In this document: positions 32,737 through 47,433 of the stretch, piece by piece
Layout: every line of letters starts with the position of its first letter
Position numbering within the stretch: position 1 is the stretch's first letter
Origin: Actinoplanes sp. L3-i22
GTDB taxonomy: Bacteria; Actinomycetota; Actinomycetes; Mycobacteriales; Micromonosporaceae
DNA: 64,000 bases
Assembly (NCBI RefSeq): GCF_019704555.1
Contig: NZ_AP024745.1
Location: 3,108,501 to 3,172,500 of the forward strand
Direction: 5' to 3'
Translations under genes and position numbers: made by a program
The notes under the pieces: model-generated
Told to the model about the DNA's origin: nothing
Databases searched by the model: none
The model's input: only the letters and a program-made list of their open reading frames with translations

Positions 32737-33630
32737 ATGTCAGTGACCGATCGGGACCGCACGGCCACCAGGCTGCTGCGATCGTCCGCCGAGCACTCCT
32801 ACGACCCGTCGATCGAGATCGACTGGGAGGCCCCGTTCGTCGCGGGGAAGTACTTCGTCCCGGTGCACCGCTCCAGCCTCTACGGCACCGCGCTCTGGGA
32901 CCGGCTGACCGAGGAACAGCGGATCGAGCTCACCAAGCACGAGGTGGCCAGCATCGCCGGTCTCGGCGTCTGGTTCGAGACGATCCTGATGCAACTGCTC
33001 ATCCGCGGCTACTTCAAGCAGGACCCGACCGCCCCGCACGCGCAGTACGCGCTCACCGAGATCGGCGACGAGTGCCGCCACTCGGTGATGTTCGGCAAGA
33101 TGATCGCCCGGCTGGACACCCCGGTCTACCGCCCCGAGGGCGTCAACCAGATGCTCGGCAAGTGGATCGCGCACACCGCGACCGGCCCGCGGATGTTCGC
33201 CGCGATCCTGATCGCCGAGGAGATCCTGGACACCCTGCAGCGCGAGGCGATGGCCGACGAGACCGTGCAGCCCCTGGTCCGGATGGTCTCCCGGATCCAC
33301 GTCGTCGAGGAGGCGCGGCACGTCCGCTTTGCCCGCGAGGAGCTCGCCCGCCAGATCCGCTCGGCCGGCAAGTCCCGCCTGGCCTTCGACAAACTCGTCA
33401 TCGGCCGCGCCGCCTACCTCACCGGCACCCGCCTGATCGACCCGCGCGTCTACCGCGCCGTCGGCATCTCCCCGGAGGAGGGCGTCCGCGCCGCCCGCGC
33501 CAATCCCCACCACCAGGAGACGATGCGCTGGGCCGGCGAACGCATCGTCGCCTTCCTCGCCGACCTGGACCTCATCGGCGGCGGCCCCGCCAAGGCCCTC
33601 TGGAAAGCCTCCGGCCTCCTACCCCGCTGA
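32737..33630 (+). CDS. AurF-like diiron oxygenase
   Basis: A 297-residue helical protein of the AurF (p-aminobenzoate N-oxygenase) / DUF455-like diiron family. Metal-ligand patterns match: ExxH in DECRHS (Glu112, His115), Glu161/162 in AEEIL, and HxxxExxH in HVVEEARH (His188, Glu192, His195); Glu69 or Glu81 could be the remaining ligand. It would activate oxygen for N- or C-oxygenation. Start ATG at 32737 with a GGAGGG ribosome binding site. Divergent from a TetR-headed FMO operon, suggesting a shared oxidative pathway for a lipid or secondary metabolite. Confidence 0.85.
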   Translation: MSVTDRDRTATRLLRSSAEHSYDPSIEIDWEAPFVAGKYFVPVHRSSLYGTALWDRLTEEQRIELTKHEVASIAGLGVWFETILMQLLIRGYFKQDPTAPHAQYALTEIGDECRHSVMFGKMIARLDTPVYRPEGVNQMLGKWIAHTATGPRMFAAILIAEEILDTLQREAMADETVQPLVRMVSRIHVVEEARHVRFAREELARQIRSAGKSRLAFDKLVIGRAAYLTGTRLIDPRVYRAVGISPEEGVRAARANPHHQETMRWAGERIVAFLADLDLIGGGPAKALWKASGLLPR

Positions 33631-33905
33631 CCCGCTCACCCCGGCGACTCCTTCACCTTCCGCCCGCTCACCCCGGCGATTTCCTCGCCTTCCGCCCGCT
33701 CACCCCGGCGATTTCCTCGCCTTCCGCCCGCTCACCCCCGGCGATTTCCTCGCCTTCCGCCCGCTCACCCCCGGCGATTTCCTCGCCTTCCGCCCGCTCA
33801 CCCCCGGCGATTTCCTCGCCTTCCGCCCGCTCACCCCCGGCGATTTCCTCGCCCTCCGCCCCGCGCGCACCCGGCGATCCTTCGCCCGCTCGCACCCCGG
33901 CGACT
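33631..33905. repeat. 32/33-bp tandem repeat array
   Basis: Directly after the diiron gene stop lie seven consecutive copies of a unit CGCCCGCTCACCCC(C)GGCG followed by ATTTCCTCGCCTTC, then one degenerate copy. Copies start at 33631 (partial), 33661, 33693, 33725, 33758, 33791 and 33824; the first full ones are 32 bases and later ones 33, through one extra C. There are no spacers, so it is not CRISPR. The minus strand reads through as an 11-residue repeat, but nothing supports translation. Confidence 0.9.
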
Positions 33906-34000: not shown

Positions 34001-34154
34001 AAAATCAAAATCAAATTCATCATTGCCACGGCTGCGGCCAATAACTGACCGCCGCTCCCGCGGGGACCCTTCCGGGCCTCGCTGGCCGCTGGCGCGTCCA
34101 AAACGCGAGCCCCTCCAGGGCGACGTCCGCGGGTGGTTGCGGTTCGCAAAGACC
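34001..34154 (+). repeat. Dispersed intergenic repeat, copy A
   Basis: About 150 bases shared with 36811-36960 (opposite orientation) and 47235-47380. Common blocks, in order: AATTCATT-like start, CTGCGGCCAATAACTGA, CGCTCCCGCGGGGACCCTTC then CGGGCCTCGC, then AGGGCGACGTCC and GGGTGGTTGCGGT. The 9-bp hairpin of the other copies has one mismatch here. It starts 15 bases after the long hairpin at 33952-33986. Confidence 0.85.
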
Positions 34155-34437
34155 TGAGACCCGGTGATCACGAGACGGTCCGCGAGTGATCTGTGCGATG
34201 ACGGCCCGCCTCCCGGGCTGCCGCTACGTTCGGCGCTCATCGGGTGGCTCGGTGTGAACGAGGTGAGGGAGATCCCCGGGTGCGGAACGGTTTCCGAACG
34301 GTTGCCGATGGCCGAGTGCCGGGCGGCTGGCCGGGACCGGCTGAGGGGCCGAGGGATCGAGACCTACGGACGGTTCTGCGGCGCGTGCGGGCGTGCCAGA
34401 TTGGCGCCTGACGAATGCCGGATCGGGAGAGGGATCG
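34155..34437. other. Intergenic, nothing recognised
   Basis: The stretch between repeat copy A and the small gene at 34438 contains no frame with support, no strong hairpin and no recognised site. It presumably holds the promoter of that small gene. Confidence 0.4.
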
Positions 34438-34653
34438 ATGGACGACGCGCTGGTGGCCTACAACGCCGGACGGGTGGACGGGGCTGCCGGAACCCGCGAC
34501 CCACAGATCGCCGACGACCCGGAGATCGGCCCGGACTACCGGATCGGCCTGCTCGACGGCCGGATCGCCGCCTTCCACATGCTCAAGGAACTCCGCGACG
34601 TCTTCGGCACCACCGACCCCCTCTTCGAACACCCCGACGACCCCCGCCAGTAG
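34438..34653 (+). CDS. Small acidic hypothetical protein
   Basis: A 71-residue acidic protein starting at the ATG at 34438, with GAGAGGG seven bases upstream; codon use has the expected GC-rich third positions. It contains AGRVDGAAGTRDPQIADDPEIGPDYRIGLLDGRIAAF, predicted largely helical with a short conserved-looking core. I do not recognise a family. It stands alone between repeat-rich stretches. Confidence 0.6.
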   Translation: MDDALVAYNAGRVDGAAGTRDPQIADDPEIGPDYRIGLLDGRIAAFHMLKELRDVFGTTDPLFEHPDDPRQ

Positions 34654-35282
34654 TCCCGCGGCCGTTTGCGCCCGTTTCGCCCGCGAGATCAGGTGCCACT
34701 GCTGGAGCGCGCCAGTGAGCCCGCTCGCAGTCGTTCGCCGAGGGCGACTCGCCGCCCATGTTGACCCGGCGCCGCCCGGCGACCTGCATGATCTGTCGCG
34801 CCGGGCCGTCTGTTGCGCCGGGCCGTCTGTTGCGCCGGGCCGTCTGTTGCGCCGGGCCGTCTGTTGCGCCGGGCCGTCTGTCGCGCCGGGTCGCTTTTTG
34901 CGCCGGGCCGCCTGTCACGTCGGCGGCGCGGGCGCCGGGTCCACGCCGCTGATCACGAGGGTGTCGTCCGGGACCCGGGTCGCGGGCGGGTCCGCGTCGT
35001 GCCGTGCAGGGTCCGCCTGACGTCGTCGATGTGCTCAGCCATCCGCCGAGTTTCCGGCCCGCCGTCGTTCCGGTGCGGGCGAATCCCGAGAGGCCAGGTC
35101 GCCGGCTGGTGGTCGGGGCCGTTTCCGGGTCGCGGAGAGAGCCCTGGACACCAGACGGATAAGTCGGGCGAATCGGTGGCGGGCGGACGGGGGTCCCGGT
35201 GTGGGCGGGGGAGGGAGACTGGGGCATGGCCGGGTGGATGGTGGCTGGTCACAAGCGGGTTCGGTGGGGAAGTGAGTCGGCG
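34654..35282. other. Repeat-bearing intergenic region upstream of nnaR
   Basis: More than 600 bases without a gene I can support. It contains the 17-bp tandem array (34799-34917). A minus-strand frame from an ATG at 35042 (29 codons) and several longer overlapping frames lack ribosome binding sites and domains. The right end leads into the GlnR-box-like site and promoter of the HemD-type regulator. Confidence 0.5.
34799..34917. repeat. 17-bp tandem repeat array, seven copies
   Basis: Unit CGCCGGGCCGTCTGTTG, copies starting at 34799, 34816, 34833, 34850, 34867, 34884 and 34901. The first four are identical; the last three carry one to five changes. A unit length not divisible by three fits non-coding DNA. 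Confidence 0.92.
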
Positions 35283-35320
35283 TTATCACCACGGAAACAT
35301 TTGCCTACCGTTCCCGAAAT
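35283..35320 (+). promoter_or_regulatory. GlnR-box-like site upstream of nnaR
   Basis: TTATC-n6-GAAAC-n6-CTACC-n6-GAAAT: two strong GAAAC-type half-sites 22 bases apart with exact 6-base spacings and weaker GTnAC-type half-sites. This is the layout of actinobacterial GlnR boxes. It ends 50 bases before the start codon. nnaR is a known GlnR target in Streptomyces coelicolor. Confidence 0.5.
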
Positions 35321-35370
35321 CAGGTCTTAGGACTCTTGCAGCGAAGACGGCAGCACGGGATGGGGACTGG

Positions 35371-36471
35371 ATGACCGAGGGCGCACTGAGCGGCTTCACC
35401 GTGGCGGTCACCGCGGAGCGACGCCGCAGTGAGATGACCGCGTTGCTGGAGCGGCGCGGGGCGCGGGTGGTCAGCGCACCGGCGATCACCATCGTGCCCC
35501 TGATCGACGACGACGCGCTGCGGGCGTCGACCGAGGCGTGCATCGGCCTGGAGCCGCATCTGGTGATCGCGACCACCGGGTTCGGGTTCCGGGGCTGGCT
35601 GGAGGCGGCCGAGGGCTGGGGTCTGGGTGACACGCTGCGCGCGTCGCTGAACGGCGCCAAGATCATCGCTCGGGGGCCGAAGCCGTGCGGGGCGATCCGG
35701 GCGGCCGGGCTCACCGAGGACTGGGCCGCCAAGACGGAGGGCTCCGAGGAGGTGCTCGAACGGCTGCTGCACGACGGGGTGTCCGGGCAGCGGATCGTGG
35801 TGCAGGAGCACGGCGAGCCGCAGGTCGAGTTCGTGAACGCGCTGCGTGCGGCGGGTGCCGCGGTCGTCGAGGTGCCGGTGTACCGGTGGGCGCTGCCGCC
35901 CGACGTCGCCCCGGTGCGCCGGCTGACCGAGCAGGTCGCGGCCGGGCAGATCGACGCGGTGACGTTCACCAGCGCGCCGGCGGTGAAGGCGTTCCTGCAG
36001 ATCGCCGGAGACACGCACGCCGATGTGCTGGCCGCGTTCCGGGCCGGGACACTGGCCGCCTGCGTCGGGCCGGTGACCGCGGCGCCGCTGGTCGAGCGGG
36101 ACGTCCCGGTGGTGATGCCGGAGCGGTTCCGGCTCGGCGCGCTGATCAAGACGGTCACCGACGAGCTGCCGAAGCGGGCGGTGCGGCTGCGGGTGGCGGG
36201 TTCGGTCCTGGAGGTGCGGGGCCATGCCGCGCTGATCGACGGCGTGACCCACACGCTGGCGCCGGCCGCGATGGCGATCCTGGCGTCGCTGGCCCGCCGG
36301 CCCGGCGCGGTGGTCTCCAAGGATCAGCTCGCGGCGGCCCTGCCCCGGGGCAACGACGGGCACGCCGTGGACGTGGCGGTGGCCCGGCTGCGGGCCGCGC
36401 TCGGCTCCGGCAAACACATCGAGACGGTCATCAAACGCGGCTACCGCCTCCGCCTGGACGAAGCCGCCTGA
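35371..36471 (+). CDS. nnaR: NnaR-like regulator: uroporphyrinogen-III synthase domain plus winged helix
   Basis: A 366-residue protein with an N-terminal HemD-like domain (about residues 1-265; GFTVAVTAERR, HLVIATTGFGFRGW, VTFTSAPAVKAFL) and a C-terminal OmpR/PhoB-type winged helix (about 275-365; LAPAAMAILASLARRPGAVVSKDQL, then HAVDVAVARLRAAL and VIKRGYRL). This is the architecture of NnaR, the nitrate/nitrite assimilation regulator of streptomycetes and mycobacteria. Its position ahead of chelatase, nirBD and narK fits. Whether the HemD domain still makes uroporphyrinogen III or only senses a tetrapyrrole is open. Confidence 0.9.
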   Translation: MTEGALSGFTVAVTAERRRSEMTALLERRGARVVSAPAITIVPLIDDDALRASTEACIGLEPHLVIATTGFGFRGWLEAAEGWGLGDTLRASLNGAKIIARGPKPCGAIRAAGLTEDWAAKTEGSEEVLERLLHDGVSGQRIVVQEHGEPQVEFVNALRAAGAAVVEVPVYRWALPPDVAPVRRLTEQVAAGQIDAVTFTSAPAVKAFLQIAGDTHADVLAAFRAGTLAACVGPVTAAPLVERDVPVVMPERFRLGALIKTVTDELPKRAVRLRVAGSVLEVRGHAALIDGVTHTLAPAAMAILASLARRPGAVVSKDQLAAALPRGNDGHAVDVAVARLRAALGSGKHIETVIKRGYRLRLDEAA

Positions 36472-36478
36472 CCGGGCC

Positions 36479-36763
36479 GCGCCGCGGGACGCCGTCCCGT
36501 TGCGGAGCCGCTTGAATGACTGCGCCGCGGGACGCCCTCCCGCACTTCAGCCGCGGTGCCTGATGCCTTTGCCGGGCCCGCCGTCCACCTGGTGAACCCG
36601 GCCGCCGCGCCGGGCTCGCCACCAACGGTGCCGCCCGATGTCTTTGCCGGGCCGCCATCCCGCCCGGCAACGGAGCCGGCGAGGTTTCCCGCCGAAAGCT
36701 CACCGCCTCGGCTGGTCCTCAGGGTTGTTCCAGGGTGTCTGAAGCAGCCCTGAGGACCAGCCG
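36479..36763. repeat. Cluster of short direct repeats and a 16-bp stem hairpin
   Basis: GCGCCGCGGGACGCC occurs at 36479-36493 and 36522-36536; CTTTGCCGGGCC at 36567-36578 and 36642-36653, each within longer similar blocks. CGGCTGGTCCTCAGGG (36709-36724) pairs perfectly with 36748-36763 across a 23-base loop. The hairpin may end nnaR transcripts; the direct repeats are unexplained. Confidence 0.8.
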
Positions 36764-36810
36764 GGACCGTGACACGCGGCTGGGCCGGGAGCACGGATCG
36801 GCTCGCGTGG

Positions 36811-36960
36811 GTCCTTTGAAACCGCGACCACCCACGGACATCGCCCTGTAGGGCCTCGCGTTCTGGGCGCCCCGCGCCCTGCGAGGCCCGGAAGGGTCCC
36901 CGCGGGAGCGGCGATCTGTACCCCGGCGGACATAGGCAATGAATTTCTTGATCTTGATGG
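36811..36960 (-). repeat. Dispersed intergenic repeat, copy C (inverted)
   Basis: Minus-strand copy of the element at 34001 and 47235. Nearly identical to the 47 kb copy from the CGCTCCCGCGGGG block to the GGGCGA-TGTCC block, with the 9-bp stem GGGCCTCGC/GCGAGGCCC intact; it lacks the CTGCGGCCAATAACTGA block, replaced by unrelated bases. Its edge lies 18 bases from the sirohydrochlorin chelatase start. Confidence 0.85.
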
Positions 36961-36977
36961 TTCTGGAGGGGATCGCC

Positions 36978-37655
36978 GTGACCACCCTGATTGCTGTTGC
37001 TCATGGCACGCGCTCCGCGAACGGGCGGCGCCAGCTGCAGGAACTCGCCGCCGCGGTGGCGCGGAAGCGGCGCGGGCTCGATGTGCGGCTCTGCTACGTG
37101 GACGTGCAGGAGCCGAAGGTTTCCGCGATCGTGCCGACCGTGCGGGACGCGGTGGTCGTGCCGCTGCTGCTGTCCTGCGGATATCACGTGCGGGTGGACA
37201 TCGCGGAGGCCGTCGCGGGCACCGGGATTCCGGTGACCGCGCCGCTCGGGCCGGATCCGGTGCTGCTCGGCAGCATGCTCGGGAACCTGCCGCCGGCGGA
37301 CGCGATCGTGCTGGCCGCGGCCGGGTCGTCGGATCCGGGCTGGCGCGCCGATGTGGAGGGTGTCGCGACCCGGCTGCCGGGTGGGGCGCGCGTCGGCTAC
37401 GTCTCCGGGACCGGGCCGCGCGTGCCGGACGTGGTCGCCCAGCTGCGGCGCGAGGGTGCGCGACGGATCGCGATCGCCGCGTATCTGCTGGCCGACGGAC
37501 TGTTCTACCGGTCGTTGAGCGAGGCCGGCGCGGACTCGGTGACGCCGCCGCTGTGCCGGGACGCGGCCGTGGCGGACCTGGTGCTGAGCCGATTCGACGG
37601 CGCCTTTGTTAACGCGGAAGACGGGCGCCTCACAACCGTCGGTAGCCGTTTGTAG
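36978..37655 (+). CDS. Sirohydrochlorin ferrochelatase, CbiX/SirB family
   Basis: A 225-residue chelatase with two CbiX repeats. Visible: LIAVAHGTRS with the catalytic His, VPLLLSCGYHVRVDI with a second His, and the C-terminal half LAAAGSSDPGWR and AAYLLADGLFYRSL. It inserts iron into sirohydrochlorin to make siroheme, the cofactor of the adjacent NirB. The GTG at 36978 has GGAGGGG seven bases upstream; an ATG at 36939 lies inside the dispersed repeat and is rejected. Confidence 0.88.
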   Translation: MTTLIAVAHGTRSANGRRQLQELAAAVARKRRGLDVRLCYVDVQEPKVSAIVPTVRDAVVVPLLLSCGYHVRVDIAEAVAGTGIPVTAPLGPDPVLLGSMLGNLPPADAIVLAAAGSSDPGWRADVEGVATRLPGGARVGYVSGTGPRVPDVVAQLRREGARRIAIAAYLLADGLFYRSLSEAGADSVTPPLCRDAAVADLVLSRFDGAFVNAEDGRLTTVGSRL

Positions 37656-37774
37656 TCACATCGGGTGCGGTCCGGTTGTAGGGATTTCCGAACAACAGCG
37701 TCACCGCAAGTGGTCTTCCGGGTTAACGCCACGCCGCCAGAGTTCATTGCACACGGCCAGAAGGGACCGACGCA

Positions 37775-40228
37775 GTGACTCAGAAGCTTGTCGTCATCGG
37801 CAACGGCATGGCGGGAGCCCGGACGGTCGAGGAGATCCTCGCCCGGCACGGGGACTTCTCCGTGACGATGTTCGGTGACGAGCCCTACGGCAACTACAAC
37901 CGGATCATGTTGTCCAACCTGCTCGCCGGGGTGGAGACGGAAGAGGGCATCTTCCTCAACGACCTCGCCTGGTACCGGGACAACGGGATCACGCTGAACG
38001 CCGGCGTCAAGATCGAGCGGATCGACGCCGCGGCCAGGATCGTCCACGACAGCAACGGCGGGGCCACCCCCTACGACAAGCTGATCATCGCGACCGGCAG
38101 CTACTCGTGGACGCCGCCGATGAAGAACGTGCACAACCCGAAGCGCGGCTACCACCAGGGCGTCTTCGCGTTCCGCACGCTCGACGACACGCGCGGCATG
38201 ATCCGCTACGCCCGGGACCACGAGCGCGCGGTCGTGATCGGCGGCGGCCTGCTCGGCCTGGAGGCGGCACGCGGACTGCAGAACCACGTCAGCCACGTGA
38301 CCCTGCTGCACGCCATGGGTCACCTGATGGAACGCCAGCTCGACCCGAAGGCCGGCCAGATGCTGCAGGCCAGCGTCGAGGGCAAGCTCGGGATCAACGT
38401 GATCACCAACGCGATGACCAGCGAGATCCTCGGCAAGGACAAGGTCACCGGGGTGAAGCTGGCCGACGGCACGGTCATCGAGTGCGACGTGGTGGTGATC
38501 GCCGCCGGGATCCGGCCGAACACCGAGATGGTGGCGAACAGCGGCCTGCCGGTCGAGCGCGGCATCGTGGTCGACGACCAGATGCGCGTCCAGGGCCACG
38601 AGGACGTCTACTCGGTCGGCGAGTGCGCGCAGCATCGCGGCAGCCTGTACGGCCTGGTCGCGCCGCTGTGGGACCAGGCGAAGGTGCTGGCCGACCACAT
38701 CACCGGCACGTCCGGGGTGGCGTACACCGGCTCGAAGCTGCACACCAAGCTCAAGGTCGCCGGCATCGACGTCGCCTCGATGGGGCTGATCGCCCCGGAG
38801 CACGACGAGGACGAGGTGATCGTCTACAACGAGCCGAAGAAGGGCGTCTACAAGCAGCTGATCATCCGGAACGACGTGCTGGTCGGCGCGACGCTGGTGG
38901 GGGACAACAGCAAGGCCGCGTCGCTGATCCAGCACTTCGACCGGGGCACCGCCCTTCCCGAGGAGCGCTCGTCGCTGATCTTCGACATCGGGGGAGCGGT
39001 CGAGGAGTCGCCCGAGGACATGCCCGACGACGCCCAGGTCTGCAACTGCAACGGGGTCAGCAAGGGCGCGATCTGCGGGGTGGTGGCCGGCGGGTGCGGG
39101 ACGGTCAGCGGGGTGATGGACAAGACCCGCGCCGGTAAGGGCTGCGGTACCTGCAAGCCGCTGGTCCAGCGGATCGTCGAGTGGGCGAACGGCGGTGCGG
39201 CCGAAGAGGATCCGGCCGCGTCCTGGTACGTCCCCGGCGTGCCGATGCCGAAGTCGGAACTTATGGCTTCGATTCGGAAATACCGCCTCACCAGTGTCTC
39301 CTCGGTCTTTGCGAAGCTCGCGCCGGGCGGGGAGGACGCCAAGAGCAAGATGGGCCTCGCGTCGCTGCTGAAGATGATGTGGGGCGCGGACTACGTCGAC
39401 GAGCGCGACGCCCGGTTCATCAACGACCGGGTGCACGCCAACATCCAGCGCGACGGCACCTTCTCGGTGGTCCCGCAGATGAAGGGCGGCGTCACCACCC
39501 CGGCCCAGCTCCGCAAGATCGCCGAGGTGGCCGAGAAGTACGACGTGCCGATGGTCAAGCTCACCGGCGGCCAGCGGATCGACCTGCTCGGGGTGCCGAA
39601 GGAGAAGCTGCCGGCGATGTGGGCGGACCTGGACATGCCGTCCGGGTACGCCTACGCCAAGAGTTTCCGCACCGTGAAGACCTGTGTCGGCTCGGACTTC
39701 TGCCGGTTCGGGGTCGGTGACTCGACCGCGCTGGGCATCGCGCTCGAGGAGCGGTACCAGGGCCTCGAGGGGCCCGGGAAGATGAAGCTCGCGGTCAGCG
39801 GGTGTCCGCGGAACTGCGCCGAGTCGTACGTCAAGGACCTGGGTGTGGTCGCGATCGACGGCGGCCGGTGGGAGATCTACGTCGGCGGCGCGGCCGGCGC
39901 CCACATCCGTAAGGGCGATCTGCTCACCACGGTCGGCTCGGCCGAAGAGGTGATCCGGCTGACCGGGCGCTTCCTGCAGTACTACCGGGAGAACGCGAAC
40001 TGGCTGGAGCGGACCTACGCGTTCGTGCCGCGGATCGGCGTCGACCGGATCCGGGAGATCGTCGTCGACGACACGGACGGCATCGCCGCCGCCCTGGACG
40101 CCGCGGTCGAGGAGGCCGTGCAGTCGTACCAGGATCCCTGGAAGGAGCGGGCCGAGCCGGCCACGCCCGGCCAGTTCCGTACCTCCCTTCCGCTGATCGT
40201 CCTTCCTCAGGTTCCGGTGCGCTCATGA
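37775..40228 (+). CDS. nirB: Assimilatory nitrite reductase (NADH), large subunit
   Basis: An 817-residue NirB. Order: FAD/NADH domain (about 1-400; VVIGNGMAGARTVEEI, VIGGGLLGLEAARGL), a BFD-like [2Fe-2S] domain (CNCNGVSKGAIC, then GCGTC, about 425-465), and the ferredoxin-like and siroheme/[4Fe-4S] domains (TCVGSDFCRFG and SGCPRNCAES with the four cluster Cys). It reduces nitrite to ammonium. GTG start with AAGGGA upstream. It overlaps nirD by four bases. Siroheme supply comes from the upstream chelatase. Confidence 0.96.
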   Translation: MTQKLVVIGNGMAGARTVEEILARHGDFSVTMFGDEPYGNYNRIMLSNLLAGVETEEGIFLNDLAWYRDNGITLNAGVKIERIDAAARIVHDSNGGATPYDKLIIATGSYSWTPPMKNVHNPKRGYHQGVFAFRTLDDTRGMIRYARDHERAVVIGGGLLGLEAARGLQNHVSHVTLLHAMGHLMERQLDPKAGQMLQASVEGKLGINVITNAMTSEILGKDKVTGVKLADGTVIECDVVVIAAGIRPNTEMVANSGLPVERGIVVDDQMRVQGHEDVYSVGECAQHRGSLYGLVAPLWDQAKVLADHITGTSGVAYTGSKLHTKLKVAGIDVASMGLIAPEHDEDEVIVYNEPKKGVYKQLIIRNDVLVGATLVGDNSKAASLIQHFDRGTALPEERSSLIFDIGGAVEESPEDMPDDAQVCNCNGVSKGAICGVVAGGCGTVSGVMDKTRAGKGCGTCKPLVQRIVEWANGGAAEEDPAASWYVPGVPMPKSELMASIRKYRLTSVSSVFAKLAPGGEDAKSKMGLASLLKMMWGADYVDERDARFINDRVHANIQRDGTFSVVPQMKGGVTTPAQLRKIAEVAEKYDVPMVKLTGGQRIDLLGVPKEKLPAMWADLDMPSGYAYAKSFRTVKTCVGSDFCRFGVGDSTALGIALEERYQGLEGPGKMKLAVSGCPRNCAESYVKDLGVVAIDGGRWEIYVGGAAGAHIRKGDLLTTVGSAEEVIRLTGRFLQYYRENANWLERTYAFVPRIGVDRIREIVVDDTDGIAAALDAAVEEAVQSYQDPWKERAEPATPGQFRTSLPLIVLPQVPVRS

Positions 40229-40536
40229 AGACCACATCGCTCGTCAATCTCGGACCGGTCACCGACATCCCGTTGGGCGAGGGGCGTACCTACGCCGTCG
40301 ACGGGGACATGATCGCGATCTTCCGCCTGCGCGACAGCTCCCTGCGCGCGGTCTCGGCGATCTGCCCGCACAAGGGCGGCCCGCTGGCGGACGGGCAGAT
40401 CGACAACGCGGTCGTCGTTTGCCCCCTGCACCTGTTCGCCTGGGACCTCGCCACCGGGTGTTCCCAGTCAGGCCAGCCCCCGATCAACGTCTACCCGGTA
40501 CGGGAAGACGACGGTCACATCCTTTTGGGAGACTGA
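40225..40536 (+). CDS. nirD: Nitrite reductase small subunit, Rieske-type
   Basis: A 103-residue Rieske-fold protein with CPHKGGPL and CPLHLFAWDL, the two Cys-His pairs of a [2Fe-2S] centre; in many NirD proteins these are lost, so retention is notable. It partners NirB. Its ATG overlaps the nirB stop (ATGA), and narK follows two bases after its own stop. Confidence 0.94.
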   Translation: MKTTSLVNLGPVTDIPLGEGRTYAVDGDMIAIFRLRDSSLRAVSAICPHKGGPLADGQIDNAVVVCPLHLFAWDLATGCSQSGQPPINVYPVREDDGHILLGD

Positions 40537-40538
40537 TC

Positions 40539-41876
40539 ATGACTGCCATAGCTGTCGAGCGTCCTTCATCCGCCACCCTCAAGGGCCACTGGATCGACGA
40601 CTGGAACCCCGAGGACCCGGCATTCTGGGCCAACGGCGGGTCCAAGATCGCCAAGCGCAACCTGATCTTCTCGATCTTCTCCGAGCACATCGGCTTCTCG
40701 GTGTGGTCGCTCTGGTCGGTGATGGTGCTCTTCCTCGGCCCGCAGTACGGCTTCGACCCGGCCCAGAAGTTCCTGCTCACCGCCGTGCCGACGCTGGTCG
40801 GGGCGGGGCTGCGGATCCCGTACACGTTCGCGGTGGCCCGGTTCGGCGGCCGCAACTGGACCATCATCAGCGCGTCCCTGCTGCTCATCCCGTCGGTCCT
40901 GGCGGCGTTCCTGATCCAGCCGGGCGTCTCGTTCACCACGCTGGTGCTGCTGGCCGCGACGGCCGGGGTCGGCGGCGGCAACTTCGCCTCCTCGATGGCG
41001 AACATCAACGCGTTCTTCCCGAACCGCTACAAGGGCTGGGCGCTCGGCATCAACGCCGGCGGCGGCAACATCGGCGTCGCCGCGGTGCAGCTGGTCGGCC
41101 TGTTCACGCTGGCCGTCTTCGGCGCCGGGCACCCGGGGATCGTGGCCGGCATCTACATCCCGCTGATCGTGCTCGCCACGCTCGGCTCGGCGATCTGGAT
41201 GGACAACCTCAGCCAGGCCCGCAACGAGAAGCGCGGCATGCGGGACGCGGTGCGGGAGGGGCACGCCTGGGTGATGTCGCTGCTCTACATCGGCACGTTC
41301 GGCTCGTTCATCGGCTTCGGGTTCGCGTTCGGGCAGGTCCTGCAGGTGCAGTTCGCGACCCAGTTCAACACCCCGATCAAGGCGGCCTACCTGACCTTCC
41401 TCGGGCCGCTGCTCGGGTCGCTGATCCGGCCGGTGGGCGGGGCGCTCGCCGACCGGCTGGGCGGGGCGAAGGTCACGTTCGTCAACTTCATCGCGATGGG
41501 GCTCGGCGCGAGCGTCGTCCTGATCGCGGCCCAGCAGCGGTCGCTGCCGCTGTACATCGCCGGGTTCATCAGCCTGTTCGTGCTGAGCGGGCTGGGCAAC
41601 GGCTCGACGTACAAGATGATTCCGGCGATCTTCAAGGCGAAGTACGCCGGCGACGACCACCAGGCGCGGCGGATCTCCGGTGCGGTGATCGGCCTCGCCG
41701 GGGCGATCGGCGCGGTCGGCGGGGTGCTCGTCAACCTGGCGTTCCGGCAGTCGTTCCTGGCCTACAAGGACGCGGACGCGGCGTACCTGGGGTTCATCGC
41801 GTTCTACGCGCTCTGCGTGATCGTCACCTGGGCGGTCTACCTGCGACCCGGCGCCCGCCAGGCGATCGCGGTCTGA
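40539..41876 (+). CDS. narK: Nitrate/nitrite transporter, MFS NNP family
   Basis: A 445-residue, 12-segment major facilitator of the nitrate-nitrite porter family: an N-terminal WNPEDPAFWANGG, the FFP-N-x-Y/KG motif in INAFFPNRYKGWALGINAGGGNIGVA (first NNP signature) and a second glycine-rich signature GLAGAIGAVGGVLVN. It imports nitrate or nitrite or exports nitrite. ATG at 40539 with GGGAG upstream. No nitrate reductase gene is present in the window, so nitrate reduction would need a gene elsewhere. Confidence 0.94.
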   Translation: MTAIAVERPSSATLKGHWIDDWNPEDPAFWANGGSKIAKRNLIFSIFSEHIGFSVWSLWSVMVLFLGPQYGFDPAQKFLLTAVPTLVGAGLRIPYTFAVARFGGRNWTIISASLLLIPSVLAAFLIQPGVSFTTLVLLAATAGVGGGNFASSMANINAFFPNRYKGWALGINAGGGNIGVAAVQLVGLFTLAVFGAGHPGIVAGIYIPLIVLATLGSAIWMDNLSQARNEKRGMRDAVREGHAWVMSLLYIGTFGSFIGFGFAFGQVLQVQFATQFNTPIKAAYLTFLGPLLGSLIRPVGGALADRLGGAKVTFVNFIAMGLGASVVLIAAQQRSLPLYIAGFISLFVLSGLGNGSTYKMIPAIFKAKYAGDDHQARRISGAVIGLAGAIGAVGGVLVNLAFRQSFLAYKDADAAYLGFIAFYALCVIVTWAVYLRPGARQAIAV

Positions 41877-41888
41877 GTCCCGCGTCAG

Positions 41889-41919
41889 GTGGCCCGGTGC
41901 GCTGTCGGCACCGGGCCAC
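41889..41919 (+). terminator. Terminator of the nirB-nirD-narK operon
   Basis: Perfect 12-bp stem GTGGCCCGGTGC with complement and loop GCTGTCG, 12 bases after the narK stop. Confidence 0.82.
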
Positions 41920-42144
41920 CGGCGTCTCCGGTCCCCAAGATTTCGCACTCAGTGTGCGGCGCCCGGTTTGACGTTTGATAGATGCGTAATGAGCTGCGGA
42001 AATGCACGATTGATCTAGCTTGATCGAAGATCGAATTGCACAACGGCGTCACCTGATCGTGGACGTGTGTCGCCAACCGGAAAGATCCGCGATCCATATG
42101 ATCAGTTTGTCCGAAATTGCCTTTATGAACGAAAAGGTGATCCG

Positions 42145-42540
42145 ATGAACAAGCTGATCCGTGGGTTCGCGATGTCCGGCCTGGCCGCCGCCGCGGGCCT
42201 GGTCATGACCGCCGGCCCGGCCGCCGCGTCGTCCGCCGCCCACGCCACGCCGGAGGCCAAGCCCAAGGCGCCGGCCGCCGCACAGGCGAAGTCCCGCTCC
42301 CGGGTGCTCGGTTTCTACCGCAGCTCCGGGGCGTGTCACCGGGACGGCCAGCGCGGCGAGTTCCGTCGCCAGTGGACCGACCACGACTGCATCCCGGTCC
42401 GGGAGGGCTTCCGGCGCGGCTACGCGCTGAAGGTCTACTACGGCTGGGGTGGTCCCGGCTCGCACGACATGCACGATCACGACCACGGCCCGCACGACAT
42501 GCACGACCACGGCCCGCACGGCCCGTGGAAGAAGAACTGA
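42145..42540 (+). CDS. Secreted protein with His/Asp-rich tail
   Basis: A 131-residue protein with a Sec signal (cleavage near GPAAASSA), an Ala/Pro/Lys-rich spacer, a central region with two Cys (SSGACHRDG and TDHDCIPVREGF), and a C-terminal tail repeating H-D-M-H-D-H and G-P-H. The spacing suggests a disulfide and a metal-binding tail for copper, zinc or nickel. AAGGTGA precedes the ATG at 42145. No family recognised. The gene is alone and closed by a strong hairpin. Confidence 0.78.
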   Translation: MNKLIRGFAMSGLAAAAGLVMTAGPAAASSAAHATPEAKPKAPAAAQAKSRSRVLGFYRSSGACHRDGQRGEFRRQWTDHDCIPVREGFRRGYALKVYYGWGGPGSHDMHDHDHGPHDMHDHGPHGPWKKN

Positions 42541-42555
42541 GCGGATTCGTCGCAC

Positions 42556-42595
42556 GGCCGAGGGCCGCATCCTTTCCGGGGTGCGGCCCTCGGCC
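42556..42595 (+). terminator. Terminator of the His-rich protein gene
   Basis: Perfect 14-bp stem GGCCGAGGGCCGCA with complement and a 12-base loop, 15 bases after the stop. Confidence 0.85.
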
Positions 42596-42717
42596 ATTGC
42601 CGTTGCTCGCGGTCAGATCATTTCGCGGTACGGCGTCAGCCGGGCCCCCGCATTCACGCGCGAGGTTTACGCCACACCAATCCGGGAATGTCATATTTTT
42701 TCTGGACAATTCTGGCC

Positions 42718-42745
42718 GAACGGATGATTCGCGAATGGTCCGTTC
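42718..42745 (-). terminator. Possible terminator of the ABC-2 operon
   Basis: GAACGGA/TCCGTTC with an inner ATTCG/CGAAT stem, three bases after the permease stop; an A-rich stretch lies downstream on the minus strand. Weaker than the others. Confidence 0.45.
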
Positions 42746-42747
42746 CG

Positions 42748-44535
42748 CTATTGCCCGGCGGTGAGTGGGCGCCGCCCCCAGAGAACCAGCCCGGTCAGCA
42801 GCATCGCCGCCCCGAGCGCGACCATCCCCAGCGCCACCCCGGTCCGCGCGTCCCCGCCCAGGTGCGACGCCGCGATCCAGCCCCCGTGTGCCCCCAGGAC
42901 CAGCACCAGCAGCCCCTGCGGCAGCACCGGGATCCACCCGGCCGTGAGCAGGACCAGCGCCCACGCGGTCGACCGGTTCTCCCGGTACCACCCGGGATCC
43001 CAGGTCAGCGGAACCGCCGGCGGCGGTGGCGCGCTGCGGTCCCCGGCGGCGGCCAGGATCTCGGTGCCCCGCCGGGCGAGCCGGTCGTCGGCCAGCCAGA
43101 GGGCACCCCGCCCGACCGCCACGCCGGTCACCAGGCCGACGATCGGCGCGAGCCAGCGCAGCCCGCCCGGCCCCCAGACGGCCAGGGCGAACGCCGGCGC
43201 GGCGGCCAGCAGCGGCCCGGTCATGGCGAGCAGCACGCTGATGATGTCGGTCGGGTTGTCGGCGGCGGTCGGGTGCCGCACGTCGCGGACCGGGCGGACC
43301 CGCAGCAGCGCCACCCAGACCGGGGTGGACGCGCCGGCGCCGAGCACCGCGGGCAGCACGGCCAGCGCCGGGAGCGGGTCCACGCCCGGGGCGACCAGGA
43401 TCCCGGCGACGGTCAGCAGCACGCCGATCGGCAGCGCGAGGAGCAGCCAGGCCAGCGCCCGGCCCCGCGTCTCGGCGCCGGTGCCGCCCGGGGTGAGCAG
43501 CGGCATCCACAGCGCGGTGCCGTCCAGGCCGACCAGGCTCGCCGCCATCCCCGCGGCCCACAGCACGGCGAGCGGACCGGCCCAGGGCGCGAGCAGGGTC
43601 ACGTGGGCGAGCAGGGGCAGCAGGCCGAGCAGGAGCCCGTAGACGACCGCGAACGTCAGGTACTGCAGCCGCAGCGGATGCCGTACCCAGGAGAGCAGTT
43701 CCCGGACCGTGACCGCGCGGATCGGACCCGGGGTCGCGCTGAACCGCGCGCGGTTGGTCGCCGGCCGGCGCGGGCTGAACGGCGCACCGGCCGTGATCAC
43801 CCGGCGGACCAGCAGGGCGTACGCGGCGACGCCGCCCCCGACCAGCAGGGCCAGCCCGAGCAGCAGAGCGGTCGCGACGAGCGGCGTCGCGGTGGCCGCG
43901 GCCAGCGGCCAGTCGCTCGGGATCCGCTCCAGCGCGGCGAAGGTGGCCGGCGGCGGCCCGGTGATCAGCAGCAGGCCGATCCAGGGGGCCACCGCCCAGA
44001 CGGAGCCGGAGACGCCCATCACCGCGCCGGTGAACAGTCCGGTGAGGACGGCGCCGACCGGCCCGGCGGCCCGCCCGACGGCTTCGACGGCGACGGCCGA
44101 GCCGGTCAGGCCGAGCAGCCAGAGCAGGACCGCCCCGAGTGCGGCGACCGCGGCCGCGCCGGGGCCGTGCTCGACCGCGGCGTGCACCGGCAGCGCGGCC
44201 AGGGCCAGGAGCGAGACGGCCGGGCCGATGCCGAGGGCCGACGCGGCGAGCAGGCCGATCGTCATCGGGGCGGCCGTGATCGGCTCGAGGCGCAGCTGGG
44301 CCGGGCGCAGCCGGCCGCGGGTCCCGCCGAGCAGCAGCGGGAGGACGATCCAGCCGAGGACCCAGGCCCCGGTGAGGATGGTGAGGGTGTGCCGGTCGCC
44401 GGTCACGGCGTACCGCAGGAGCCAGCCGGCCGCCAGCAGGCCGGCCAGCGCCGCGACCATCGGCGCCGGGTTCTCCCGCAGCGCGCGGCGCAGCATCGTC
44501 CACCGCATCCGGGCCAGCGTGGGGACCGCGCTCAT
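42748..44535 (-). CDS. ABC transporter membrane subunit
   Basis: A 595-residue, very hydrophobic protein with about 12-14 membrane segments, arranged as two similar halves, as in large ABC-2-type permeases of actinobacteria. No catalytic motif. Its ATG overlaps the stop of the ATPase gene (ATGA), so the two form one exporter. The substrate is unknown. Confidence 0.82.
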   Translation of the reverse strand: MSAVPTLARMRWTMLRRALRENPAPMVAALAGLLAAGWLLRYAVTGDRHTLTILTGAWVLGWIVLPLLLGGTRGRLRPAQLRLEPITAAPMTIGLLAASALGIGPAVSLLALAALPVHAAVEHGPGAAAVAALGAVLLWLLGLTGSAVAVEAVGRAAGPVGAVLTGLFTGAVMGVSGSVWAVAPWIGLLLITGPPPATFAALERIPSDWPLAAATATPLVATALLLGLALLVGGGVAAYALLVRRVITAGAPFSPRRPATNRARFSATPGPIRAVTVRELLSWVRHPLRLQYLTFAVVYGLLLGLLPLLAHVTLLAPWAGPLAVLWAAGMAASLVGLDGTALWMPLLTPGGTGAETRGRALAWLLLALPIGVLLTVAGILVAPGVDPLPALAVLPAVLGAGASTPVWVALLRVRPVRDVRHPTAADNPTDIISVLLAMTGPLLAAAPAFALAVWGPGGLRWLAPIVGLVTGVAVGRGALWLADDRLARRGTEILAAAGDRSAPPPPAVPLTWDPGWYRENRSTAWALVLLTAGWIPVLPQGLLVLVLGAHGGWIAASHLGGDARTGVALGMVALGAAMLLTGLVLWGRRPLTAGQ

Positions 44536-45287
44536 CCGGGGATCAGCCAGGTCAGCTCGGCGGTGCCGGGCGCGTCGGCGCCGACGAGCTCGACGAAGCG
44601 CTCCTCCAGGCCGGCCGGGCCGGCCACCTCGCGGACCGGGCCGGCCGCGACGACCCGGCCCTGGTGGATCACCGTGACGTCGTCGCACATCTGCTCGACC
44701 AGCAGCATCGAGTGGGTGGACAGGACGGTCGTGCCGCCGCCGGCCACGAACCGGCGCAGCACCCGGCGGATCGCCGCGGCCGACACCGGGTCGACCGCCT
44801 CGAACGGCTCGTCGAGCACGAGCAGCCGCGGCGCGTGCAGCAGGGCCTGGGCGAGCCCGACCTTCTTGCGGGTGCCGGTGGAGCAGTCCGCGAGCGGCGT
44901 GGCGGCGCCCTTGGCCAGGCCGAGCACCTCGATCAACTCGGCGATCCGGTCGGCCGGGGCGGGGACGCCGCGCAGCCCCGCGCAGTAGTGCAGCAGCTCG
45001 GCGCCGGTGAGCCGCTCCGGGAAGTCCAGCCCGTCCGGCAGCACCCCGGTCAGCGCCCGGGCCCGCGGCCGGTCGGCGAGCGCGTCGCCGCCGAGCAGCC
45101 GGATCGTGCCGGCGTCCGGGCTGATCAGGCCGACCGCCATCCCGATCGTCGTCGACTTGCCGGCGCCGTTCGGCCCGACGATCCCGTGGAACGTTCCCGG
45201 TCGCACGGTGAGATCGACGTGATCCACCGCCCGGTACGTCCCGAAGGTCTTGGTCAGACCACGAATTTCCAGTGCGGCGTCATTCAC
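44532..45287 (-). CDS. ABC transporter ATPase
   Basis: A 251-residue nucleotide-binding protein of the CcmA/ABC-2 type: Walker A GPNGAGKST, signature CSTGTRKKVGLAQAL (the variant usual in this type), Walker B LLVLDEPFEAVDP and H-loop STHSM. It powers the membrane subunit encoded immediately downstream. It is divergent from the secreted protease gene over 56 bases. Confidence 0.92.
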   Translation of the reverse strand: MNDAALEIRGLTKTFGTYRAVDHVDLTVRPGTFHGIVGPNGAGKSTTIGMAVGLISPDAGTIRLLGGDALADRPRARALTGVLPDGLDFPERLTGAELLHYCAGLRGVPAPADRIAELIEVLGLAKGAATPLADCSTGTRKKVGLAQALLHAPRLLVLDEPFEAVDPVSAAAIRRVLRRFVAGGGTTVLSTHSMLLVEQMCDDVTVIHQGRVVAAGPVREVAGPAGLEERFVELVGADAPGTAELTWLIPG

Positions 45288-45343
45288 AGGTTTACCCTAG
45301 TCAATGGCTTCCCAACGGTGGGGGTCAATGGAAATGTGTCCAC

Positions 45344-47233
45344 ATGAGATGGCGAACCCCTTTCCTGGCGACGCTCGTCGTGGCGCTGGTGACGGCGTCG
45401 GCGGGACCCGCCGGTGCGGCCGCGGCCTCGCCGCGCCTCGGCTACCTGGACCCCGGCGGCCAGCCCCGCCTGACCGAGAAGGTGCCGGTCAACGTGGTCT
45501 TCGTCGGCTACACGCCGAAGCGCTCGGACTTCCTCGCCGGGCTGTCGAAGACCTACGAGCCGGTGGTCCGCTCCCGGCTGGCCTACGGCGTGACCGAGAA
45601 GCTCGGCATCACCTACACCTACGACTACAAACTCAAATATACCGACAAGTCCTATCAGGACTCGTTCTTCCGGCAGCTCGGCAAGCTCGCCACCCCGGCC
45701 CCGCTGACCGCGTACCAGCAGGCCTACAACGACCAGGCGAAGAACGTCCTGGACATCACGTCCAACAACTACATCGACGCGCCGACCGTCGAGAAGTGGC
45801 TGGCCTTCCACCCGCCGGCCGGCGTGGACACCCGGCGCGACACGATCTACTTCATCAACTGGTACGGGCGCTCGGACTTCAAGTTCCACGTCTACACCAA
45901 GACCGGTGAGCCGGACCCGGACACCGGCTACGACTTCGGCAAGAACCGGGACAGCCGCAAGCTGATCGCCTGGGGCGGGACGACCGCCGACGACGAGGAG
46001 ACCGGTCTCGGCGCGACCCGGCGGGTCTGGTTCCACGACCTGTCGGCCGGCCCGGAGTCCTGGACGTCCAACTACGACGTGGACAACGCGGACGTGGACG
46101 GCGACGGCGTCCCGGACTACCGGATGCCGCCGATCTGGGAGTACACCGGGAACGGCTTCCGGGACCCGAGCGAGCTTACCGGCGACCTCAGCAAGATCAC
46201 CCGCTACGTGGCGCTGAACCTGCTGATGACCACGTCCCCGCTCTACCCGGTCGAGCTGCCCGGCGCGACCATGCCGAAGAGCATCAACGTGGACAGCAAC
46301 ACCTACGAGGGCTGGGCCGGGGTCGACGCCTCGAAGCAGTACCTCAAGCCGAAGCTGGTCACCCAGGAGCTGTCCGAGCTGCGCTGGCGCAACCGGCTCA
46401 GCGAGGACCAGCAGGATCTGCCGTACACCGCCGAGAACCAGGCCTGCTACCTCGGCGAGCTGGCCGACGAGTCGTGCTACCCGGACTCCGGCTACCCGGC
46501 GTTCGCCAACCTCTACCTCTACACCCGCGACCACCTCGCCGGCGTGCTCGACGGCAGGGCCGACTACGAGGTGCCGGTCTTCAACTACGCGGTCGGCGCG
46601 GGCATCGGCGTGCCGGCCCTCGGCTACGCCGACGACGACTGGGCGACCGGCGACCAGTCCTACGTCTTCTCGTTCATCTCGCCCGAGGTCGTCGCCAGCG
46701 GCTACGGCCTGACCACCACCCAGATCCACGAGGTCGGCCACCACCTGGGCATGTCGCACCCGCACGACGGCTACGACAGCGCCACCGGCGTCGACTACGG
46801 CCCGTCCGGCGACTTCCTGTTCGCCAACGCCGGCGACGAGAACAACACGATGATGAGCTACATCGACCTGAACTGGGACTTCAGCCAGTTCGACCGGGAC
46901 AACAGCGACCGCTTCCTGACCGCCGCCTACTGGGAGGCGGCGAACCGGGTGGCCGCGACCGTGCCGAAGGGCAAGGGCTACACCTCGCTGCGGGTGGCCG
47001 ACGCGCTGCTCGCCCTCTCCTCGAAGGCGTTCGCGAACCACGACTACCGGGCCGCGTACACCCTCGCCGAGAAGGCCTACTACAGCGTCGCCGCGATCCC
47101 GGGCGCCGGCACCGCCAAGGTCCAGGCCCAGCTCACGGCCGAGGCCAGCGCCGCCCGCAAGAACACCGACATCCACGACCCGCACGAGTTCATCGACACC
47201 CTCGCCCCGGACAGCCCGAGAAGCCAACCCTGA
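45344..47233 (+). CDS. Secreted zinc metalloprotease-like protein
   Basis: A 629-residue protein with a Sec signal (MRWRTPFLATLVVAL, cleavage near GAAAAS). The zinc motif HEVGHHLGMSH is at residues 462-472, an HExxHxxGxxH metzincin-type site, followed by a candidate Met-turn NTMMSY at 501-506. The N-terminal 400 residues have no similarity I recognise, though a D-V-D-G-D-G-V-P-D segment resembles a calcium loop. It probably cleaves extracellular proteins. Its stop is followed within two bases by the dispersed repeat copy B. Confidence 0.8.
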   Translation: MRWRTPFLATLVVALVTASAGPAGAAAASPRLGYLDPGGQPRLTEKVPVNVVFVGYTPKRSDFLAGLSKTYEPVVRSRLAYGVTEKLGITYTYDYKLKYTDKSYQDSFFRQLGKLATPAPLTAYQQAYNDQAKNVLDITSNNYIDAPTVEKWLAFHPPAGVDTRRDTIYFINWYGRSDFKFHVYTKTGEPDPDTGYDFGKNRDSRKLIAWGGTTADDEETGLGATRRVWFHDLSAGPESWTSNYDVDNADVDGDGVPDYRMPPIWEYTGNGFRDPSELTGDLSKITRYVALNLLMTTSPLYPVELPGATMPKSINVDSNTYEGWAGVDASKQYLKPKLVTQELSELRWRNRLSEDQQDLPYTAENQACYLGELADESCYPDSGYPAFANLYLYTRDHLAGVLDGRADYEVPVFNYAVGAGIGVPALGYADDDWATGDQSYVFSFISPEVVASGYGLTTTQIHEVGHHLGMSHPHDGYDSATGVDYGPSGDFLFANAGDENNTMMSYIDLNWDFSQFDRDNSDRFLTAAYWEAANRVAATVPKGKGYTSLRVADALLALSSKAFANHDYRAAYTLAEKAYYSVAAIPGAGTAKVQAQLTAEASAARKNTDIHDPHEFIDTLAPDSPRSQP

Positions 47234-47234
47234 G

Positions 47235-47380
47235 CAAAATCCAGAGATTCATTTCCGACGCTGCGGCCAATAACTGATCGTCGCTCCCGCGGGGACCCTT
47301 CCGGGCCTCGCAGGGCGCGGGGCGCCCAGAACGCGAGGCCCTACAGGGCGACGTCCGAGGGTGGTTGCGGTCTTTAAAAC
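47235..47380 (+). repeat. Dispersed intergenic repeat, copy B
   Basis: Third copy of the element also at 34001 and 36811. It keeps the CTGCGGCCAATAACTGA block of copy A and the whole GC-rich core of copy C. The stem GGGCCTCGC (47303-47311) pairs with GCGAGGCCC (47333-47341), enclosing a GGGCGC/GCGCCC inner stem. It begins immediately after the protease stop. Confidence 0.87.
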
Positions 47381-47397: not shown

Positions 47398-47433
47398 GAA
47401 CGGCTCACGGGTCCGGGCACTCGTGAGCCGTTC
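47398..47433. terminator. Terminator after the protease gene
   Basis: Perfect 12-bp stem GAACGGCTCACG with complement and a 12-base loop, between repeat copy B and the FtsX operon. Confidence 0.78.

What the first reader, a model, noticed from the sequence alone, without database searches (positions are those of the whole stretch)
34001..47380. Dispersed ~150-bp intergenic repeat, three copies with a conserved hairpin
Three intergenic stretches (34001-34154 plus, 36811-36960 minus, 47235-47380 plus) share the same sequence over about 150 bases, none within a credible gene. The GC-rich core of the 36.8 and 47.2 kb copies is almost identical, including a 9-bp stem GGGCCTCGC/GCGAGGCCC with an inner GGGCGC/GCGCCC stem; copy A has one stem mismatch. 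Copies lie at the ends of transcription units: two bases after a stop codon, next to a terminator-like hairpin, and 18 bases before a start codon. Three copies in 13 kb predict many genome-wide. It may be a REP/MITE-like element, an RNA-level element, or a structured small RNA.
Basis: seen in the sequence. Interest (0 to 1): 0.72.

Follow-up and report, generated by a model that had tools for sequence, protein, structure and literature searches.

The report
Dispersed covarying hairpin repeat in Actinoplanes
This bacterium's chromosome carries roughly two hundred copies of a 150-base hairpin-forming sequence, mostly at the ends of genes, that keeps its folded shape across related species and looks like a small parasitic repeat with no known engine of its own.

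Summary
Copies A, B and C are real and intergenic. They belong to a family with 185 matches (up to 3 mismatches) to a 21-base core in the 12.01-Mb genome (control 0 and 1), about 216 by extrapolation. It is nearly confined to Actinoplanes: 53 of 67 genus genomes match; a 200-genome family sample gave 28 genomes in the genus and 1 marginal outside. The hairpin is kept by compensatory change: in 31 sequences from 30 genomes, 71 pair cells changed on both sides against 24.8 in shuffles, while an AGAAC bulge and flanking motifs hardly vary. Sites are filled or empty between species. In several comparisons sequence follows the genome more than the site, though one ortholog pair contradicts this. 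No Y1/RAYT gene in this genome, no target duplication, no U-tract at B or C, no Rfam match at gathering score. Best reading: a new ERIC/BOX-like non-autonomous repeat, moved in trans by an unknown factor and retained at gene 3' ends. Mobility, strand, transcription and enzyme remain unshown.

The parts
34001..34154 (+). Copy A, left-module type a; stem arms 34074-34082 and 34105-34113 (one mismatch)
   Evidence: an element in the same orientation at the syntenic place in G169 and, by position 5' of the same gene, in A. cyaneus and G137
36811..36960 (-). Copy B, left-module type b; stem arms 36851-36859 and 36881-36889
   Evidence: same intergenic region filled in the same orientation in G159 (A. 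cyaneus), G169, G177, G180 (A. palleronii) and without an element in G178, G197, G137, G183, G186 (names by contig match)
47235..47380 (+). Copy C, left-module type a, 2 nt after the TGA stop at 47231-47233; 25 bp between the aligned flanks and no element in G197
47235..47259 (+). A/T-rich 5' leader of copy C (family consensus about ATCAAGATCAAATTCTTCATTGCC), variable, recognisable in most genus members aligned
47303..47341 (+). Central hairpin of copy C: outer arms 47303-47311/47333-47341, inner arms 47313-47318/47322-47327, AGAAC bulge 47328-47332
   Evidence: compensatory changes; bulge nearly invariant (copy A has AAAAC)
36700..36772 (.). Second hairpin repeat (GGCTGG...CCAGCC) on the 3' side of copy B; an optional neighbour, tandem in G169
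   Evidence: within 300 nt of the 3' side in 9 of 115 copies, of the 5' side in 0 of 115

Best explanation
It is a family of non-autonomous, structured interspersed repeats of about 150 bp (A/T-rich leader, alternative left modules, covarying GC-rich hairpin with a nearly fixed AGAAC bulge, alternative right ends), nearly confined to Actinoplanes. I infer that it spread by insertion, mobilised in trans by an enzyme not identified here that recognises the hairpin or its fixed motifs. Copies survive mainly at gene 3' ends, where they do least harm. Recombination among copies mixes the modules and makes copies within one genome resemble each other. Shown: copy number, structure conservation, mosaic variation, filled and element-free sites, higher average likeness within than between genomes, absence of a Y1 transposase. 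Inferred: mobility, the enzyme, gene conversion rather than re-insertion, and selection as the cause of placement.
For: 185 core matches, strand-balanced 93/92. 14 copies in 464 kb here against 8, 3 (one partial) and 0 in 400 kb of three relatives. Of 10 of the 14 sites with bracketing synteny in each relative, 5 hold an element in G169, 1 in G178 and 0 in G197. Low-copy species branch among high-copy ones, though several deep nodes are weak. 71 haplotypes in 115 copies; all 8 combinations of 2 left modules and 4 right-end classes occur and these ends are only weakly linked (z 2.5). Five orthologous pairs are 79-87% identical against a 90% mean within this genome. In A. cyaneus the copies at sites A and B are 93% identical to each other but 79% to their orthologs here. 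66 of 115 copies lie between convergent genes against 19% of intergenic bases, as for pneumococcal BOX, RUP and SPRITE (PMC3049150 section 6).
Against: No transposition event, target duplication or mobilising enzyme was found; IS110 and reverse-transcriptase genes do not track copy number in ten clade genomes. Homogenisation is not uniform: the site-B copies of G169 and G177 are 91% identical to each other, while sites A and B within G169 are only 75%; and one of the five ortholog pairs is the best match on the G169 side (ranks 2, 4, 1, 7 and 5 of 8). Linkage does not simply fall with distance: the left module is linked to a base near the far end (z 7.9). The convergent-gene excess is not reproduced in the unselected regional set: 4 of 14 convergent, 9 tandem, 1 divergent (p 0.05 against the 115). 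The 115 were chosen for closeness to the core. Identical orientation at 5 of 5 shared sites with different internal sequence could also mean repeated insertion at a hotspot. Strong retention of the hairpin could mean host function.
Confidence: 0.57

Rival explanations
1. A host-serving RNA element: a 3'-UTR hairpin that ends, stabilises or processes transcripts of the upstream or convergent genes; the conserved bulge is a protein or RNase site.
For: Compensatory changes keep the hairpin while the bulge hardly varies. Leader within 30 nt of, or overlapping, the upstream stop in 59 of the 92 copies whose upstream gene is co-oriented. C or U opposite G in the outer helix fits a plus-strand RNA.
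Against: Almost absent in close relatives (2 hits each in G183 and G197). No U-tract at B or C. Copy C sits between the stop and a neighbouring GC-rich hairpin that has a counterpart in the element-free site of G197 (read by eye). A frequent C-A pair in the main stem fits the opposite strand. Folding of single copies is not above shuffles.
Confidence: 0.22
2. A DNA-level chromosome site: the double-stranded or extruded hairpin binds an architectural or replication protein, and copies are kept for genome organisation.
For: Uneven along the chromosome, with 0 of the 100 listed exact core places at 4-5 Mb (chi-square over 11 bins p 1.7e-4). Nearly fixed motifs beside a covarying stem suit protein recognition. 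A DnaA-box-like site lies within 300 nt on the 3' side of 10 of 115 copies and on the 5' side of none.
Against: No replichore strand bias (43 of 100, p 0.19, origin assumed at the contig start). 14 of 67 genus genomes have no match. Uneven spacing also follows if copies persist mainly in the conserved part of the chromosome.
Confidence: 0.1

Closest known systems
ERIC (enterobacterial repetitive intergenic consensus)
   Same: Intergenic, predicted to fold as one long stem-loop, copy number varying widely between taxa (passages of PMC10969869 and PMC2267715); 127-bp imperfect palindrome from recall and a table row
   Different: Different lineage; GC-rich; alternative end modules. No direct sequence comparison with ERIC was run, and enterobacterial genomes were not searched here
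Pneumococcal BOX / RUP / SPRITE
   Same: Modular or structured interspersed repeats, over-represented between convergent genes, about half of the sites shared by all strains (PMC3049150 section 6)
   Different: Here the modules are alternative ends rather than tandem boxB units; different phylum and GC-rich. No direct sequence comparison was run
REP/BIME with RAYT
   Same: High-copy intergenic hairpin
   Different: About 150 bp rather than 20-40 bp, and no Y1 transposase in the host genome

Membership tests
REP (RAYT-associated) | 20-40 bp palindrome (abstract as shown in the listing, PMC3733652) | tested here: not met
   Conserved stretch about 150 bp
REP (RAYT-associated) | RAYT / Y1_Tnp gene in the genome | tested here: not met
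   PF01797: 0 in this genome and 0 in high-copy G169, G177 and G137, but present in high-copy G159, G178 and G180; 21 of 67 genus genomes in all
REP (RAYT-associated) | Unpaired GTAG or CGTC tag at one end | not tested
   Not examined systematically
MITE | Terminal inverted repeats | tested here: not met
   Ends read about ATCAAGATCAAATTC and CGGTTTCAAAGGACCC in the base profile, not inverted copies; judged by eye
MITE | Target-site duplication | tested here: inconclusive
   No flank-to-flank repeat above shuffles in 115 copies, but the ends are fuzzy and element-free sites have diverged
MITE | AT-rich (as stated in PMC3049150) | tested here: not met
   GC 0.70-0.78 in the core of 14 copies of this genome
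ERIC-like / BOX-like short interspersed repeat (kind, not sequence family) | Dispersed, intergenic, structured, filled or element-free between relatives | tested here: met
BOX | Mosaic of exchangeable modules | tested here: met
   All 8 left by right combinations occur, z 2.5; but left module linked to one far base, z 7.9
Intrinsic terminator | Stem followed by U-tract | tested here: not met
   0 sites around copies B and C; copy A not scanned
Known Rfam RNA family | Match at gathering score | tested here: not met
   0 in the whole window; only matches far below gathering score around B

The most novel reading that the evidence does not exclude
The element spreads and overwrites its own copies by a homing-like process: the hairpin is cut by a host structure-specific nuclease, and repair from another copy converts it, giving genome-wide concerted evolution and module mixing without any transposase. 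It would be a selfish repeat driven by hairpin-triggered gene conversion.
Probability: 0.1. Interest if true: 0.75.

Novelty: new variant of a known kind. Interest (0 to 1): 0.52.

Why it matters
The genus includes the acarbose producer SE50/110 (PMC3364876), and its intergenic sequence is shaped by a repeat family for which my searches found no published description. The family gives about 200 natural replicates in this genome plus filled and element-free syntenic sites among related species. That is good material for testing how bacterial short interspersed repeats spread without a recognisable transposase, and whether gene conversion keeps dispersed repeats alike.

Tried and rejected
Y1/RAYT mobiliser: rejected for this genome; the gene is also missing in high-copy G169, G177 and G137, though present in high-copy G159, G178 and G180. 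IS110 (PF02371): matches in 9 of 10 clade genomes, including low-copy G183 and G186, none in G197, 37 in G178, so no tracking. Reverse transcriptase (PF00078): 7 of 10, absent in high-copy G137 and G178. Target duplications: none above shuffles. Protein coding: rejected by length modulo 3; three of six frames lack stops in all 115 gap-stripped cores, which I put down to GC content. Strand by G-U versus A-C: inconclusive; the 21-mer selection froze the 5' arm, so one search is biased. Outer helix: two registers pair similarly, so only the inner hairpin is claimed. Plasmids and phages: no match with copy C. Papers: search listings, passages of five papers and one section of one of them; nothing on this family.

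Samples and drops: the 115 copies come from the 40 BLAST places and the 100 listed exact core places (85 further matches were counted but not listed), merged, plus neighbours in the same loci; 118 hits, 3 duplicates dropped. A3 left out weak relatives' hits (score under 25, L033, L034, duplicate L129). A4 used the best match of 29 relatives plus B and C; genomes without a strong match are not in it. Two of the eight markers were read on gap-stripped rows and are nearly uninformative.
Full report
CHECK. The three stretches align over about 150 bases (mean column identity 80% including short flanks) at the coordinates and strands given. B and C are nearly identical in the core; A departs at one outer-stem and one inner-stem pair. 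C begins 2 bases after a stop codon and B ends 18 bases before a GTG. In the whole 12,014,766-base genome a 21-base core with up to 3 mismatches occurs 93 times forward and 92 times reverse, against 0 and 1 for the reversed control. In an unselected 464-kb stretch around the window I find 14 copies, 12 of which carry that core within 3 mismatches, which extrapolates to about 216 copies.

ANATOMY. From 115 aligned copies, conservation starts about 31 nt before the core and fades about 16-18 nt into the right flank. Parts in order: an A/T-rich leader (about ATCAAGATCAAATTCTTCATTGCC, variable); a left module of two kinds (GCTGCGGCCAATAACTGATC type in 93, GTCCGCCGGGGTACAGATC type in 22); CGTCGCTCCCGCGGGGACCC; the hairpin; GGGCGACGTCCGNGGGTGG; and alternative right ends (TTGCGG 72, GCACGG 20, TCGCGG 13, other 10). 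Further repeats may follow: an ACGCGA-type extension in 45 of 115 and a GAACGGCCACC unit in 8 (looked for on the 3' side only); a second hairpin in 9 and a DnaA-box-like site in 10 on the 3' side, 0 and 0 on the 5' side.

STRUCTURE. On 28 mixed sequences the named hairpin has 43 cells changed on both sides against 10.7 in shuffles and 20 at the best slid control. On 31 sequences (best matches of 29 relatives plus B and C) it is 71 against 24.8, and 32 at the best slid control; covariation score 0.228 against 0.077 (0 of 500 shuffles), but the count of further pair types is not above shuffles (17 against 15.6, 133 of 500 reach it). The 9-bp stem is kept through forms such as CTTCGC/GCGAAG, CCGAGC/GCTCGG and GTGAGC/GCTCAC, while the AGAAC bulge and flanking motifs hardly change. 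The members were found with models or profiles, some carrying this structure, which leans towards it; the slid controls address that only partly. The outer helix is ambiguous (two registers). Single-copy folding is not better than shuffles. Which strand matters is unresolved: the outer helix tolerates C/U opposite G on the plus strand, yet a main-stem pair is often C-A on the plus strand, that is G-U on the minus strand.

DISTRIBUTION. With the covariance model R1, 53 of 67 genus genomes have a match at E 1e-3 or better. The genus is named from relatives' records, the nearest being A. palleronii and A. cyaneus; this species itself is not named. In 200 genomes of the family 29 match, 28 of them in the genus and 1 marginal outside it (E 3.9e-4). 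Plasmid and phage collections have none at BLASTN sensitivity with copy C. Of 80 named loci around the gene next to copies A and B, only those of A. palleronii and A. cyaneus hold an element. The 100 listed exact core places (complete only to 11.09 Mb) are uneven along the chromosome, with none at 4-5 Mb.

CONTEXT. In the sample of 115, 66 copies lie between convergent genes, 26 and 18 between tandem genes, 5 between divergent genes and 0 inside a gene; 26 overlap the end of a called gene, and in 8 of these the upstream ORF ends at a stop in the element. Convergent gaps hold 19% of intergenic bases here and 21-32% in the three relatives. The unselected regional set does not repeat the excess: 4 of 14 convergent, 9 tandem, 1 divergent (p 0.05 against the sample). 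Genes were called by my own codon-score script, so these numbers are approximate. A convergent-gene excess is also reported for pneumococcal repeats and read there as evidence of parasitic elements (PMC3049150 section 6).

HISTORY. At site B the element is present in the same orientation in G159 (A. cyaneus), G169, G177 and G180 (A. palleronii) and not found in five other members of the same clade. Of 14 regional copies, 10 can be bracketed by synteny in each of three relatives (different tens; the gaps between aligned flanks range from 21 bp to 3 kb): 5 hold an element in G169, 1 in G178 and 0 in G197. All 5 G169 pairs share orientation. The five ortholog pairs are 79-87% identical (mean 0.82) against 0.79 for all cross-species pairs, 0.90 within this genome and 0.85 within G169; within the 8 G169 copies the ortholog ranks 2, 4, 1, 7 and 5. 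In A. cyaneus the copies at sites A and B share a loop found in none of the other eight copies compared, are 93% identical to each other and 79% to their orthologs here. Against this, the site-B copies of G169 and G177 are 91% identical while sites A and B within G169 are 75%. So likeness follows the genome in some comparisons and the site in at least one: conversion among copies is supported but incomplete, and independent refilling of sites is not excluded. The left and right ends are weakly linked (z 2.5) and close markers strongly (z 13), but the left module is also linked to a base near the far end (z 7.9). Low-copy species branch within the high-copy clade, with several deep nodes of the two-gene tree weakly supported.

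MECHANISM. I looked for a mobiliser. Y1/RAYT transposase is absent from this genome and three other high-copy genomes; IS110 and reverse transcriptase do not track copy number in ten clade genomes. No target duplication is visible. The commitment is to a non-autonomous repeat moved in trans by an unidentified factor, kept at gene ends and partly homogenised by recombination, at 0.57. A host RNA function is the main rival (0.22), a DNA-binding or organisational site the next (0.1). On re-checking, the G169/G177 result and the z 7.9 linkage made me lower the main reading from 0.60 and the novel case from 0.12 to 0.10, and raise the RNA rival from 0.20.

NOVELTY. It works like ERIC or BOX repeats; whether it is related to them by sequence was not tested directly. 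It fails the size and transposase tests for REP and the inverted-repeat and composition tests for MITE. Literature searches and the passages I saw (PMC3733652, PMC3049150, PMC10969869, PMC2267715, PMC3364876; section 6 of PMC3049150) gave no description of it. The passages of the SE50/110 genome paper speak only of short repetitive contigs in general.

Noticed in passing
genome-wide in G000; listed members nearest the window at 3070817 and 3227388 (both outside it): A second dispersed family: two DnaA boxes (GTTRTCCACA...TCCACAG) at an almost constant spacing, in most of those seen in 464 kb followed by a GATCTTG...GACAAT-like stretch. 58 + 41 matches here, control 0/0. Genus counts run from 1 to 92 and correlate with (capped) hairpin-element counts, Spearman 0.59 over 67 genomes, not corrected for kinship. 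So many DnaA-box pairs away from oriC could titrate DnaA.
   Followed up: partly
36700-36772: Second hairpin repeat (GGCTGGTCCTCAGGG...CCCTGAGGACCAGCC), solitary here and tandem in G169; 3 copies in 464 kb of this genome, 12, 4 and 0 in 400 kb of G169, G178 and G197.
   Followed up: partly
33606-33900: Tandem minisatellite of 32-33 bp units upstream of copy A.
   Followed up: no
34775-34940: Tandem array of 17-bp units (GCGCCGGGCCGTCTGTT) between copies A and B.
   Followed up: no
47398-47433: Perfect 12-bp GC-rich hairpin without U-tract (GAACGGCTCACG...CGTGAGCCGTTC) right after copy C, with a similar hairpin in the element-free site of G197 (read by eye): the element seems inserted between the stop codon and this hairpin.
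   Followed up: partly
eight loci, e.g. L012, L019, L104: Upstream reading frames that run 40 nt into the element and end at the TGA in its CAATAACTGATC left module, so the element may have replaced gene C-termini.
   Followed up: no
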